Shown here piece after piece: positions 2,304 to 5,640 of a stretch of 64,000 nucleotides of DNA. Position 1 is the stretch's first letter. Each line of letters opens with the position of its first letter. The DNA comes from Alkalidesulfovibrio alkalitolerans DSM 16529 (GTDB taxonomy: Bacteria; Desulfobacterota; Desulfovibrionia; Desulfovibrionales; Desulfovibrionaceae): the NCBI RefSeq assembly GCF_000422245.1, contig NZ_ATHI01000030.1, positions 62,001-126,000 on the forward strand, written 5' to 3'. Made by a program: the position numbers and the translations under genes. The notes under the pieces were generated by a model. It did not search any database, was not told the origin of the DNA, and saw only the letters and a list, made by a program, of their open reading frames with translations.

Positions 2304-2930
2304 TTACTCGACCTCGGGTTCGTCGGGCTCGTCAGAGTCGCCTTTCTTGCGCCGCCAGGGGTTCTCCTGGCCGCGCGCCAGCCGCTCGATGTTATCCCGG
2401 TGCTTCCAGTACAAGAAGAGCATAGCCACGAGCGCCGCAGGCACGAAGGCCACATTGCCGCCCAGGAGCAGCAGCACCGGCAGGGCCGCGCCGAACATCA
2501 GCGCGCCGAGCGAAACGAAGCCCGAGAGCACGATGACCGCGATGCAAAGCGCCACGGACAGGACCGTGGTCAGAGGGGCGAGGGCCAGAAACCCCCCGAT
2601 GGTCGTGGCGAAACCCTTGCCGCCGCGCCCCGAGAGGAAGCACGAATACATGTGGCCGAGCACCGCCGCCAGCGCGCAAAGCGAGAGATAGAGCCAGCCG
2701 TCGTTGAAGGTCGTGGCCACCCAGACGCAGAAGAAGCCCTTGAGCAGATCCAGGGCCAGGACCGCGACGCCGTAGCGCGCGCCGCACAGCCGCGCCACGT
2801 TGGTCGCGCCGATGTTGCGCGAACCGTGCTCGCGCGGATCGAGACCGCAGACCGCGCGGGTGATGAAGACCCCGAAGGGCACGGAGCACAGCACGTAGGT
2901 GATGATCAGCCAGGCCAGATTGAGAATCAT
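2304..2930 (-). CDS. plsY: Acyl-phosphate:glycerol-3-phosphate acyltransferase PlsY
   Basis: Integral membrane enzyme that acylates glycerol-3-phosphate from acyl-phosphate, the first step of phospholipid synthesis. The 208-residue protein has the family landmarks: SVPFGVFITR near the N-terminus, then GSRNIGATNVAR and LDLLKGFF, then SGRGGKGFATTIGG in the middle, and about five hydrophobic segments. The start ATG at 2930 follows an AAGGA sequence and matches the usual family start. A longer open frame upstream would add an arginine- and proline-rich non-family extension, which I reject. The C-terminus is an acidic and basic tail (RRKKGDSDEPDEPEVE). It is convergent with hflX and divergent from the CULT-domain gene. 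Confidence 0.94.
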   Translation of the reverse strand: MILNLAWLIITYVLCSVPFGVFITRAVCGLDPREHGSRNIGATNVARLCGARYGVAVLALDLLKGFFCVWVATTFNDGWLYLSLCALAAVLGHMYSCFLSGRGGKGFATTIGGFLALAPLTTVLSVALCIAVIVLSGFVSLGALMFGAALPVLLLLGGNVAFVPAALVAMLFLYWKHRDNIERLARGQENPWRRKKGDSDEPDEPEVE

Positions 2931-3152
2931 GGTCGTTCCTTCGCGAGGGGCGTCGGGCCGTTGCCCGCGCCGCATCCTGACGCAAAAGCCCGCGCCCCGC
3001 AAGCCTGGGGTGCGCGTTGCGTTCGGATGCGGGCGCGCCCCGTGGCCGGGCCGTTTGCAGCGCCGTCTGGATGTGGCATAGATGGAGCCATGGGACATGG
3101 GCCGCATACGCCATACCCGGAGCTTTGGGCGCGGTCGCGCGTGCAAGGGGCG

Positions 3153-3584
3153 ATGGCAGTGGGGATTTCGCCGACTGTGGGTTTGGCCGGGCCTCTTCGG
3201 CTCCTGCGCGAGGCCCCGACGCTGCCCGGCGCGCCCGTGCTCGGCGACGAAGAACGCCCAGTGCGCGAGGGCGAGGAGCGGCTGATCCGCTGCGCCGCCT
3301 GCGGCCTGGGGTTGGCGCAGGTCACGGCGCGCGTCCAGATCGGCGGACGCCACGCCCACGTCTTCGCCAATCCGGCCGGGCTGGTCTTCGAGATCGGCTG
3401 TTTCAGGGGCGTGTTCGGGGCGCGTGGCGAGGGACCGTTCATGGCCGAGTTCTCATGGTTTCCCGGCCACTCCTGGCAGGTGGCCATCTGCCGCTCCTGC
3501 GAGGCACATCTGGGCTGGCGCTTCTCCTCGCTCGAAGGCTTCCGCTTCTGGGGGCTGATCCTGTCCCGCTTGGCCGAATATTGA
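3153..3584 (+). CDS. Cereblon-type CULT-domain protein (thalidomide-binding fold)
   Basis: A 143-residue protein consisting of a short leader and one CULT domain, the ligand-binding domain of cereblon, also known as a single-domain bacterial protein in Magnetospirillum (MsCI4). Zinc ligands are CAAC (C47, C50) and CRSC (C113, C116). The aromatic cage residues are W102, W108 and W122, in FSWFPGHSW and HLGWRF. Their spacing of 6 and 14 equals that of human cereblon W380/W386/W400, and the second Cys pair falls 5 and 8 residues after the middle Trp, as in cereblon. HVFANPAG and the C-terminal FWGLILSRLAE also match the bacterial members. The natural ligand in bacteria is not established. The start is uncertain: ATG 3090, ATG 3153 and GTG 3159 are all possible, the last with AAGGGG 8 bases upstream. 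Confidence 0.85.
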   Translation: MAVGISPTVGLAGPLRLLREAPTLPGAPVLGDEERPVREGEERLIRCAACGLGLAQVTARVQIGGRHAHVFANPAGLVFEIGCFRGVFGARGEGPFMAEFSWFPGHSWQVAICRSCEAHLGWRFSSLEGFRFWGLILSRLAEY

Positions 3585-3594
3585 GCTTGGGCCG

Positions 3595-5640
3595 CTACTC
3601 GGCCAGGGCCTCGGTCACGCGGATTTCGTTGCTCAAGGGATCGACCTTGCCGAAAACAAGGGAGAAGCGCTGGCCCGCCACGAACTTGTCGCCGCAAAGA
3701 TTCTTTGGCGCGCGCACGAATATCTGCAGATCGGGCAGGGCGAAGTTCACGAGTTGGCCGCAGTCTTCCACGGCCACGGCGGGCCAAAGCCGTTTGGGGT
3801 GCTGCTTGATGTGCGTGAGCTTCCAGTAGCGCGGCCGGTAGCGCTGCACCTGGGCGGCCGCGTCGAGTCTGGCGCTCAGGCGCGGCAGTTTGGCCGAAAG
3901 CTCCTCCGCGTCGAAACGCGGCGTGCCCGTGGTCAGGAACGAGAGCACCTGGGCCGCGTTGACGAGGTCCGGATAGCGCCTGAGCGGCGAGGTCACTGGC
4001 GCATAGACGGCAAGCCCGAGCGCGCGGTGCGGCTTGGCCTCGACTTCGAGCAGCGCGGGGCCCATCTGCTTCACGGCCCGAAAGATGTCCACCGGGTCTT
4101 CCCACACGCCCGCGAACTCGCGCGGCAAGGCCACGTCCTGGGTGCGGTGCAAGAGCGCGATGTCCTTCTCCTGGGCCCACAAGGCGCAGGCCTCGTTGGC
4201 CAGAATCATGAACTCGCTGACCAGAAGCTGTGCCTTGGGAGCGCCTCGCCCCTCCTCGACGTGAACTTCGGTCTTCTCCGGATACCCCGTGAGCGTGATC
4301 GAGGGGTCGGGCCGCTCGATGATCACCGCGCCGCGCTCGATACGCCGCTCGCGCAACGCCAGCGCCAGGGAATGGGCCAGGGCCATGCGGCCCTCGGGTT
4401 CGTCCTCGATGGACTGCTCGGCCGCCTCGTAGGTCGCGTTTTCGGCCACGCGCACCGGCGCGAAACGAAACTCCTTGGCGAGCACCGCGCCGTGCTCGGA
4501 GAGCAGGAACTCGGCCACCAGGGCCGGGCGGGTCTGCCCGGCGCGGAGCGAAAAGACGTCCGTGGCCAGGGCCGTAGGCAGCATGTTGCTCGCGCCCTCG
4601 GGCAGATAGATGCTCGTGGCCCGGTCGCGCACGGCCTTGTCCAGATCGCCGCCGAACTCCCAGCCCAGGGCCGGACAGGCCAGGGCCACGGAAAGGGCGA
4701 TGCCGCCCGGCGCGCGGCGGATGATAAAGGCGTCGTCGATGTCGCGCGTGGAGGCCGAATCGATGCTCACGAAGGTCGTGTCCTCTGGCGCTGGCTCCGG
4801 CAGTTCGGCCACCGCCTGGGTGAGCCGTCGGACGTCCTCCGCGAAAGGCGCGGCCCAGTCGTCGCCTGGGTCGTAGTCCGCCTGATCGAAATGGAAGTTG
4901 TAGTGCGGCGGAACAATCCCCCACCGCGTGGCCAAAAGCAGCGGAAGGTGGGCGATCTCTGGCAGGCCCTTGCGCAGTTCGCGCCACACGGCCTCGCTGT
5001 CCGGGTCCTCGGGGTTGCCGATGCGGGCCAGAAGAACCTCGCGCAGCCGCTGGGCAAGCCCTTCGTCTTCCATGGTCGGTGGCGTCTGCCCCGGCGGCAG
5101 GTTGAAGAGCGTCTTGACGAAATCGCGTCCGGCCGTGGCGATGCGCTCCACCATGTGCTGCCGCTCAGCCTCCTCTAGGCGGCGGGCCACGTCCTCGGCT
5201 GAGAGCACATGGAAGAGCGGCGGCTGGAACTTGAAGTGGGTCTTTTGCTCGATGAGCGCCCGGCCTACGGCGGCCACCATGTCCACGGACGGTTCCTGAC
5301 CAAGCAACTCGGCGAACCACCCGGCCGGAGCCGAGGCCACCTCGCCCTGGGCAAGCTCCCACAGTTCCTGGGTGTCTATCGACCGGGCCAAGCGCGCGCG
5401 TTCGTCCACGTGACGCTTGAGCGTCTCCTCCATGGCATTTCGGCCGGAAAGGCCCTCTTGGGCCGGGCCGGACCAGGGCAGGAGCCGCGCGGCGGGCACG
5501 GCCGTCTCGCGGCCTGTCTGGGTGAAGACCCGAAGCCGCCCGGATTTCTCCTCGATCACGATGCCCGTGACGGGCTGATTGCCCTGCATGAATTCGACGA
5601 CGCATCCGGGGCTCGGATGCTGGATGAGGCCCAAAACCAT
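3595..5640 (-). CDS. RNB-domain exoribonuclease (RNase II family)
   Basis: A 681-residue protein of the RNase II/RNase R superfamily, 3'-to-5' exoribonucleases. The N-terminal 60 residues form a small beta-rich domain (PGCVVEFMQGNQPVTGIVIE). A helical region follows, then the RNB catalytic domain at about 290-590. Its metal-binding aspartate cluster is visible as SIDSASTRDIDDAF. YPRRAP-type core segments are represented by SPLRRYPDLVNA. The C-terminal OB-fold region is short, as in the bacterial RNB proteins that lack the S1 and Lys-rich tail of RNase R. It lies at the 3' end of the minus-strand run, 86 bases after the DUF4911 gene. The exact substrate cannot be told from sequence. Confidence 0.9.
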   Translation of the reverse strand: MVLGLIQHPSPGCVVEFMQGNQPVTGIVIEEKSGRLRVFTQTGRETAVPAARLLPWSGPAQEGLSGRNAMEETLKRHVDERARLARSIDTQELWELAQGEVASAPAGWFAELLGQEPSVDMVAAVGRALIEQKTHFKFQPPLFHVLSAEDVARRLEEAERQHMVERIATAGRDFVKTLFNLPPGQTPPTMEDEGLAQRLREVLLARIGNPEDPDSEAVWRELRKGLPEIAHLPLLLATRWGIVPPHYNFHFDQADYDPGDDWAAPFAEDVRRLTQAVAELPEPAPEDTTFVSIDSASTRDIDDAFIIRRAPGGIALSVALACPALGWEFGGDLDKAVRDRATSIYLPEGASNMLPTALATDVFSLRAGQTRPALVAEFLLSEHGAVLAKEFRFAPVRVAENATYEAAEQSIEDEPEGRMALAHSLALALRERRIERGAVIIERPDPSITLTGYPEKTEVHVEEGRGAPKAQLLVSEFMILANEACALWAQEKDIALLHRTQDVALPREFAGVWEDPVDIFRAVKQMGPALLEVEAKPHRALGLAVYAPVTSPLRRYPDLVNAAQVLSFLTTGTPRFDAEELSAKLPRLSARLDAAAQVQRYRPRYWKLTHIKQHPKRLWPAVAVEDCGQLVNFALPDLQIFVRAPKNLCGDKFVAGQRFSLVFGKVDPLSNEIRVTEALAE

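What the first reader, a model, noticed from the sequence alone, without database searches (positions are those of the whole stretch)
3153..3584. Bacterial cereblon-type CULT protein with intact Trp cage and zinc site
All three cage tryptophans (W102, W108, W122) and four zinc cysteines (C47, C50, C113, C116) keep the exact spacing of human cereblon and the Magnetospirillum protein. No ubiquitin machinery is present in bacteria, so the natural ligand and role, in a sulfate reducer next to plsY and an RNase, are open. In eukaryotes the site reads cyclic-imide degrons, so sensing of damaged protein C-termini or a uracil-like metabolite is a reasonable idea.
Basis: partly seen in the sequence, partly recalled or inferred. 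Interest (0 to 1): 0.7.

Follow-up and report, generated by a model that had tools for sequence, protein, structure and literature searches.

The report
Bacterial relative of thalidomide's target
A relative of sulfate-reducing bacteria carries a small, genuine version of the drug-binding part of human cereblon; the family was already known, but its members share a tail motif, and some have a sister copy with a rebuilt pocket, which makes the unknown bacterial job testable.

Summary
The finding is real. Window 3153-3584 (+) encodes a single-domain CULT protein: 40% identity to the solved Magnetospirillum protein MsCI4 in the structure alignment, AlphaFold core block pLDDT 91-98, all three cage Trp and four zinc Cys present. 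Bacterial CULT proteins were described in 2015, mainly from delta-proteobacteria, so it is a new member of a known kind. The plsY/RNase neighbourhood is shared by the one congener only (1 of 100 loci) and explains nothing. 101 of 199 genomes of the order have a match. Two things go beyond the finding. (1) Many canonical copies carry a hydrophobic-hydrophobic-[R/K] motif (RLLR here) in an otherwise variable N-terminal tail, mostly 23-28 residues before the core; on tails not used to find it, 33 of 52 had it (shuffles 6.8, maximum 16). (2) All 9 sampled genomes of one genus, Solidesulfovibrio by contig match, carry a second CULT type with the first cage Trp and the binding-hairpin Asn replaced. 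Best explanation: a non-catalytic reader of cyclic-imide ends on damaged proteins, the motif serving as dock or latch. The domain is shown; ligand, partner and role are inferred. No Lon linkage, heat-shock promoter signal or confident docking of the tail was found.

The parts
3153..3584 (+). CULT gene, 143 aa (P0001); alternative in-frame ATG start at 3090
3192..3209 (+). N-terminal tail motif PLRLLR (residues 14-19), 24 residues before the core
   Evidence: motif found without supervision in 79 non-redundant tails, tested on 52 tails not used to find it
3210..3281 (+). variable linker (residues 20-43), predicted disordered, length nearly constant in relatives that have the motif
   Evidence: low pLDDT; distances
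3282..3581 (+). CULT beta-tent core, residues 44-143
   Evidence: block pLDDT 91-98 from residue 41 on; Foldseek to MsCI4 5amh E 5.2e-11, rmsd 1.4 over 102 columns
3291..3302 (+). zinc Cys pair C47-C50
   Evidence: invariant columns in A1
3369..3374 (+). N73-P74 of the binding hairpin (human N351-P352)
   Evidence: NP in 160 of 160 distinct canonical copies aligned
3456..3458 (+). cage W102 (human W380, MsCI4 W79)
3474..3476 (+). cage W108 (human W386, MsCI4 W85)
3489..3500 (+). zinc Cys pair C113-C116
3516..3524 (+). cage W122 and fourth aromatic F124 (human W400, F402; Tyr in MsCI4)
2304..2930 (-). plsY (glycerol-3-phosphate acyltransferase), divergent neighbour; not part of the system
   Evidence: PF02660 1.9e-46
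3595..5640 (-). RNB-domain ribonuclease, convergent neighbour; not part of the system
   Evidence: PF00773 1.1e-57

Best explanation
A stand-alone, non-catalytic ligand reader. The zinc pins the beta-tent fold; the W102/W108/W122/F124 cage with N73-P74 and F79 holds a flat cyclic imide (glutarimide or aspartimide type). Most likely natural ligand: the cyclic imide that forms at the C-terminus of aged or cleaved proteins at Asn or Gln, a mark whose formation PCMT1, a PIMT-type methyltransferase, promotes in human lysates. Without ubiquitin the domain would act as a recognition adaptor or sequestering factor, the N-terminal hydrophobic-hydrophobic-Arg motif either docking on a partner (an AAA+ protease is the obvious candidate) or folding back over the ligand site, somewhat as the N-terminal belt of human cereblon does. 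Shown here: domain, fold, cage, their conservation, the motif and its spacing, the lack of a conserved neighbour. Inferred: the ligand class, from MsCI4 and human cereblon. Guessed: partner and outcome.
For: Fold and pocket like MsCI4, which binds thalidomide, uracil and uridine (PMC4287342 sections 7 and 9; PDB titles). Zinc and cage residues intact in the canonical copies of 96 of 98 genomes found without requiring the Trps; N-P in 160 of 160 distinct copies. C-terminal cyclic imides are reported as natural cereblon degrons and PCMT1 promotes them (PMC12794332 passages; PMC11974815 passages). A PCMT-family match exists in 199 of 199 genomes of the order, so the mark could form there; this does not discriminate. 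Tail motif in 33 of 52 held-out tails against 6.8 (sd 2.3, maximum 16) in 1000 shuffles; 28 of those 33 lie 21-29 residues before the core against 19% of hits in shuffles. In human cereblon, belt residues Y59 and L60 bury into a pocket formed by LON domain, sensor loop and CULT domain (PMC12767645 passages).
Against: No protease partner found: the genome's two Lon proteins match none of the predicted ORFs around the 80 named-organism loci (no positive control, other proteases not tested), and no neighbour is kept across orders. No sigma-32-like promoter excess (0 of 108 upstream regions, null 0.6). 98 of 199 genomes of the order have no match, odd for a general damage pathway. PF01135 is broad: it also rang in all 14 control genomes, and some genomes of the order have only weak matches. 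19 of 52 held-out tails lack the motif at the threshold used. AlphaFold leaves the tail undocked even with motif-aligned input (block pLDDT 46-59). The residue important for closure of human cereblon, H378, is Phe (159) or Tyr (1) in 160 distinct canonical copies, so the human latch cannot be copied unchanged. MsCI4 also binds uridine, so a small-molecule ligand remains open.
Confidence: 0.45

Rival explanations
1. Sensor or buffer of a free small molecule with a uracil-like or imide ring (uridine, dihydrouracil, hydantoin, succinimide type), not of proteins.
For: MsCI4 binds uracil and uridine (PMC4287342 section 9) and is crystallised with deoxyuridine (PDB title 4v31). The cage is of the same kind. 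No Lon linkage.
Against: Of the 20 neighbour proteins typed with Pfam none is a hydantoinase, pyrimidine-salvage enzyme or transcription factor with a DNA-binding domain; a cytidylate-kinase-like cluster (7 loci, one representative typed) is the nearest thing, in one clade. Many clusters were not typed. The protein has no DNA-binding or catalytic domain to report a signal.
Confidence: 0.3
2. Enzyme acting on cyclic imides (for example opening the ring), the cage being the substrate pocket.
For: MsrB and GFA share the beta-tent fold (PMC4287342 passages; that they are enzymes is recalled). Some MsCI4 crystals hold hydrolysis products (titles 6r0s, 6r0v).
Against: The only metal site is the four-Cys zinc, which the MsCI4 authors take as structural; glutarimide drugs hydrolyse on their own under moderate conditions (start of abstract of PMC10641816 seen in the listing).
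Confidence: 0.07
3. The tail motif has nothing to do with ligand reading; it is a plain targeting or oligomerisation signal.
For: AlphaFold gives the tail low confidence and no secondary structure. MsCI4 has only about 20 residues before its first zinc Cys region, too few for the motif at this distance, yet binds ligands.
Against: The mostly fixed distance to the core is unusual for a free targeting signal.
Confidence: 0.25

Closest known systems
MsCI4 (MGR_0879), bacterial CULT protein of Magnetospirillum gryphiswaldense; prokaryotic group I of Lupas et al. 2015 (PMC4287342)
   Same: single-domain CULT, same fold, ungapped from C47 to W122, same kind of pocket
   Different: this one has the human-like Phe (F124) at the fourth cage place (MsCI4 Y101) and a longer tail with the LLR motif
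Human cereblon thalidomide-binding domain
   Same: fold (9odr rmsd 1.4 over 104 columns, 28% identity), three Trp, zinc Cys, N-P of the sensor loop, Phe as at F402 (human residue numbers partly recalled, partly)
   Different: no LON domain or DDB1-binding region; H378 is F100; H353 is A75 here, though His in 82 of 160 distinct canonical bacterial copies; about two residues shorter between first CxxC and cage (recalled)
Yippee / Mis18 (PF03226)
   Same: related beta-tent zinc fold (PMC4287342)
   Different: Pfam score 13.5 under the cut-off 26.6; predicted Yippee cage residues differ (passage)

Membership tests
CULT domain, bacterial single-domain group | two CxxC motifs for structural zinc | tested here: met
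   C47/C50, C113/C116
CULT domain, bacterial single-domain group | three Trp forming the cage, spacing as in MsCI4 | tested here: met
   W102, W108, W122; ungapped against 4v2y
CULT domain, bacterial single-domain group | beta-tent fold of solved CULT domains | tested here: met
   Foldseek to 5amh E 5.2e-11, TM 0.90 by target length
CULT domain, bacterial single-domain group | protein consists of CULT alone | tested here: met
   143 aa; besides the core only a tail of about 43 residues with low pLDDT
CULT domain, bacterial single-domain group | binds thalidomide, glutarimide or uridine | not testable with these tools
   needs protein; pocket residues N73 P74 F79 F100 S101 W102 W108 W122 F124 present
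Cereblon (E3 substrate receptor) | LON domain fused N-terminally | tested here: not met
   the genome's two LON_substr_bdg matches lie on other contigs in open frames of 848-850 codons, as for Lon proteases
Cereblon (E3 substrate receptor) | H378 closure residue | tested here: not met
   F100; F in 159 and Y in 1 of 160 distinct canonical copies
Cereblon (E3 substrate receptor) | DDB1 binding | not tested
   no partner was sought
Yippee-Mis18 (PF03226) | curated Pfam cut-off | tested here: not met
   13.5 bits against 26.6
Bacterial proteolysis adaptor (works-like hypothesis) | genetic linkage to a protease | tested here: inconclusive
   no Lon match among ORFs around 80 loci, no positive control; other proteases not searched
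Bacterial proteolysis adaptor (works-like hypothesis) | short tethering motif on a flexible tail | tested here: inconclusive
   a recurring tail motif exists; its partner is unknown

The most novel reading that the evidence does not exclude
Bacteria run a ubiquitin-free C-degron pathway: CULT proteins read spontaneous or PIMT-made C-terminal cyclic imides and hand the damaged proteins to a protease through the N-terminal LLR-type motif, or lock the ligand with it; the belt-and-CULT logic of cereblon would then predate ubiquitin. In Solidesulfovibrio a duplicated 'beta' CULT lost W102 and the hairpin Asn and reads a different mark under purifying selection.
Probability: 0.2. Interest if true: 0.85.

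Novelty: new member of a known kind. Interest (0 to 1): 0.5.

Why it matters
Cereblon is a widely used handle for drugs that destroy chosen proteins, yet what its pocket does in bacteria is unknown. A gene found in about half of the sampled genomes of one order, with a nearly invariant pocket, suggests that the pocket's job does not need ubiquitin. The tail motif and the pocket-changed sister copies give concrete mutants to test. Practical side: 55 of 160 distinct canonical bacterial copies combine a human-like His at H353 with Phe at F402, natural stand-ins for the human drug site.

Tried and rejected
Neighbourhood as clue: clustering of predicted ORFs from 80 named-organism loci (flanks up to 10 kb where the contig allowed) and from 20 sister loci plus the window gave only clade-level synteny. 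The widest clusters (one representative each typed) were a histidine kinase/response regulator (13 loci, 7 within 3 kb), CobA-HemD (12 loci, 11 within 3 kb) and RmuC (8 loci); rejected as general partners. In one search the window ORF clustered with G116 lies in another frame over plsY; one search replaced that by direct searches with PlsY, RNB and HflX.

PCMT co-occurrence: 199 of 199 genomes positive, so no discrimination. Lon linkage, and sigma-32, sigma-54, sigma-70, CtsR and CIRCE patterns upstream: nothing above shuffles. Promoter and terminator scan of 2900-3650: none. Viral contigs: 40 pattern matches, none confirmed. C-terminal Asn on neighbour proteins, prompted by human cereblon substrates: no pattern by eye. 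Yippee in the own genome: no match, but the control rang nowhere, so uninformative. AlphaFold on motif-aligned input to see the tail dock: not docked with confidence.

Biases to know. L031-L110 were fetched with a pattern that already demands W102 and W108, so cage conservation is quoted from the whole-protein search. Of its 101 positive genomes, 100 were fetched (not G052, a partial match); G094 and G101 have only beta copies, leaving 98. My extraction required a C..C for the first zinc pair and so dropped two copies, L171 (C50 replaced by Tyr) and L175 (in-frame stop at the W102 codon); they are the 2 exceptions of 98. The first recount used a wrong spacing in its pattern and returned zero; one search is the corrected count. 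The 160 'distinct canonical' and 15 'distinct beta' copies mix both sources and exclude those two. The regular expression was written after looking at the tails and is not used as evidence. Start codons for alignment A2 and for the upstream regions were picked with a bonus for the motif; the motif statistics use a start-independent stretch of up to 55 residues instead. In one search the observed set got 150 starting points and each shuffled set 60. One search used 69 held-out tails at score above 6 (38 hits, null 7.3%) but included contigs already in training and two beta copies; one search removed these and used score above 5, a threshold chosen. The held-out tails come from the same order as part of the training set. 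dN/dS values are simple pairwise counts; L069_1 was compared as a truncated copy.

Full report
Observation. Window 3153-3584 on the plus strand reads as a 143-residue protein. An in-frame ATG at 3090 is possible too. phmmer against PDB sequences gives MsCI4, the Magnetospirillum CULT protein, at 80.8 bits and E 1.2e-21 over residues 43-142, and human cereblon at 42.0-46.6 bits over residues 70-140. AlphaFold2 with 72 sequences gives block pLDDT of 91-98 for residues 41-143 and 52-59 for the first 40. Foldseek puts MsCI4 structures first (5amh, E 5.2e-11, 40% identity, rmsd 1.4) and human cereblon CULT domains after them (9odr, rmsd 1.4, 28%). W102, W108, W122, C47, C50, C113 and C116 are present. 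The fourth cage aromatic is Phe as in human F402, where MsCI4 has Tyr. The claim of exact human spacing holds for the Trps and the second Cys pair; the first CxxC is about two residues nearer to the cage than in human (recalled).

What is already known. Bacterial proteins that consist only of a CULT domain, mainly from delta-proteobacteria, were described in 2015 (PMC4287342: abstract, two sections and passages seen), with MsCI4 solved and binding thalidomide and uridine. So this is a new member of a known kind. Six literature searches on bacterial CULT proteins listed no paper whose title or shown abstract reports a cellular function for a bacterial CULT protein, the tail motif, or the changed paralogs below. 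One search held nothing; one search listed 15 of 2,607; subscription journals are mostly not held.

Distribution and context. 101 of 199 genomes of the window's order have a match, 22 of 43 genera. A scan of named genomes found 228 relatives, the best 80 kept, mostly with Desulfobacterota names, besides records titled Proteobacteria or Deltaproteobacteria, a few Gammaproteobacteria and one Magnetococcales. Viral contigs gave none. The window's family contains Solidesulfovibrio, because contig G103:C266 of the same family has the length of ALAO01000266.1, Solidesulfovibrio magneticus. The window gene sits between plsY (divergent) and an RNB ribonuclease (convergent), so it is probably transcribed alone (inference). 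Direct searches find plsY, the RNase and HflX around CULT in the congener G116 (L113, 77, 67 and 76% identity) and in none of the other 99 loci, except a distant plsY match (36%) about 9 kb away in L102. Across the 80 named loci neighbours are kept only within clades: CobA-HemD on the same strand directly upstream in 11 loci with Desulfobulbaceae or Desulfocapsaceae names or unresolved titles (gap to the matched stretch -4 to 101 bases in 10, 380 in one), PanB and an M23 peptidase in the Desulfonatronospira/Desulfonatronovibrio loci, RmuC in 8 Desulfobacterales-type loci (one representative of each typed), an ADP-ribosylglycohydrolase in 4, a spore-photoproduct-lyase-like protein in 3, a FIST protein in two Gammaproteobacteria-type loci. 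The gene behaves as an orphan.

Pocket. Among canonical copies from 98 genomes found by whole-protein search, those of 96 keep all three Trp and all four Cys with one and the same spacing (97 loci, one genome held twice); the exceptions are L171 (C50 to Tyr) and L175 (an in-frame stop at the W102 codon). In 160 distinct canonical copies from both sources N73-P74 is invariant, position 75 (human H353) is His in 82, position 124 is Phe in 94 and Tyr in 66, position 100 (human H378) is Phe in 159 and Tyr in 1, and C83 is Cys in 157. H378 is important for ligand-induced closure of human cereblon (PMC12767645, passages); the bacterial proteins lack that residue.

Tail motif. The tail is too variable to align, but an unsupervised motif search on 79 non-redundant tails found [L/C/F][L/F][R/K] preceded by loosely chosen residues, log-likelihood gain 183 against 83.6 (sd 6.3, maximum 98.5) in 25 shuffled sets. 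In this protein it is PLRLLR, residues 14-19. On 52 further non-redundant tails not used to find it, 33 score above 5 against 6.8 (sd 2.3, maximum 16) in 1000 shuffles, and 28 of the 33 lie 21-29 residues before the core against 19% of hits in shuffles. The other 19 of 52 miss the threshold. A mostly fixed linker length with changing letters suggests a geometric need: a latch onto the same domain, or a partner that touches both. AlphaFold with a motif-aligned set of 50 sequences leaves it undocked (block pLDDT 59 with the motif, 46-50 for the linker), which speaks against a stable apo latch but does not exclude a ligand-induced one. In human cereblon the N-terminal belt is disordered without ligand, and its Y59 and L60 bury into the closed interface (PMC12767645, passages). 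The likeness to that belt is my inference.

A second CULT type. In genus g7 (Solidesulfovibrio) all 9 of 9 sampled genomes carry one or two copies of a second type. 15 distinct beta copies have L, G, K, Q or H in place of W102, N73 replaced in all and P74 in 14, Gln in place of F79, and His (12) or Tyr (3) at 124, while W108, W122 and the zinc Cys stay (the first Cys pair was required by the extraction). Seven of the nine genomes have the canonical copy in tandem with it; for G094 and G101 only the beta type was found. In a quick tree of 102 rows and 105 columns the beta copies form one group with SH-aLRT 100. They do not look like decaying genes: among S. magneticus-like genomes pairwise dN/dS is 0.02-0.08 for beta (five pairs) against 0.18-0.29 for canonical copies (four pairs); two more distant beta pairs give 0.31 and 0.56, the matching canonical pair 0.41. 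They still match MsCI4 (E 9.1e-18 to 4v2y for L011_1). A pocket rebuilt under purifying selection is best read as a new ligand.

Function. The likeliest reading is a ligand reader for cyclic imides. For mammals, C-terminal cyclic imides are reported as the natural cereblon degron, and PCMT1 promotes their formation (PMC12794332 and PMC11974815, passages). A PCMT-family match is in 199 of 199 genomes of the order, but the family model is broad and rang in all 14 control genomes, so this says little. What happens after reading is open: no Lon match near the loci and no heat-shock promoter signal. I put 0.45 on the cyclic-imide reader model as stated, 0.3 on a small-molecule ligand such as a uracil-like metabolite, and 0.2 on the bold case of a ubiquitin-free C-degron pathway.

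Noticed in passing
L011, L012, L015, L042, L069, L087, L134, L149, L164, L167, L202, L203: Second CULT type in genus g7 (Solidesulfovibrio): W102, N73 and F79 replaced, zinc Cys and W108/W122 kept, low dN/dS in close pairs; only CULT type found in G094 and G101.
   Followed up: partly
L049, L054, L059, L065, L066, L076, L095, L097, L107, L108, L110: CULT follows a CobA-HemD (uroporphyrinogen methyltransferase/synthase) fusion gene on the same strand in a Desulfobulbaceae/Desulfocapsaceae-type clade (L059 typed, others by cluster); the heme enzyme UROD is a reported human cereblon substrate, probably coincidence.
   Followed up: partly
L175 (G173): CULT copy with an in-frame TAG at the codon of cage Trp W102, the rest of the domain readable after it; decay or draft-sequence error.
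   Followed up: no
L171 (G155): CULT copy with the second zinc Cys (C50) replaced by Tyr but the cage Trps intact.
   Followed up: no
L084 and L091, upstream gene: FIST-domain protein directly upstream of CULT in two Gammaproteobacteria-type loci, same strand, 12-15 bases from the matched stretch (L091 typed by Pfam, L084 by cluster).
   Followed up: no
window 3399-3401 (C83) and relatives: A fifth Cys, C83 in a G-C-F motif, is nearly invariant in bacterial CULT proteins (157 of 160 distinct canonical copies) though not one of the zinc ligands; role unknown.
   Followed up: no
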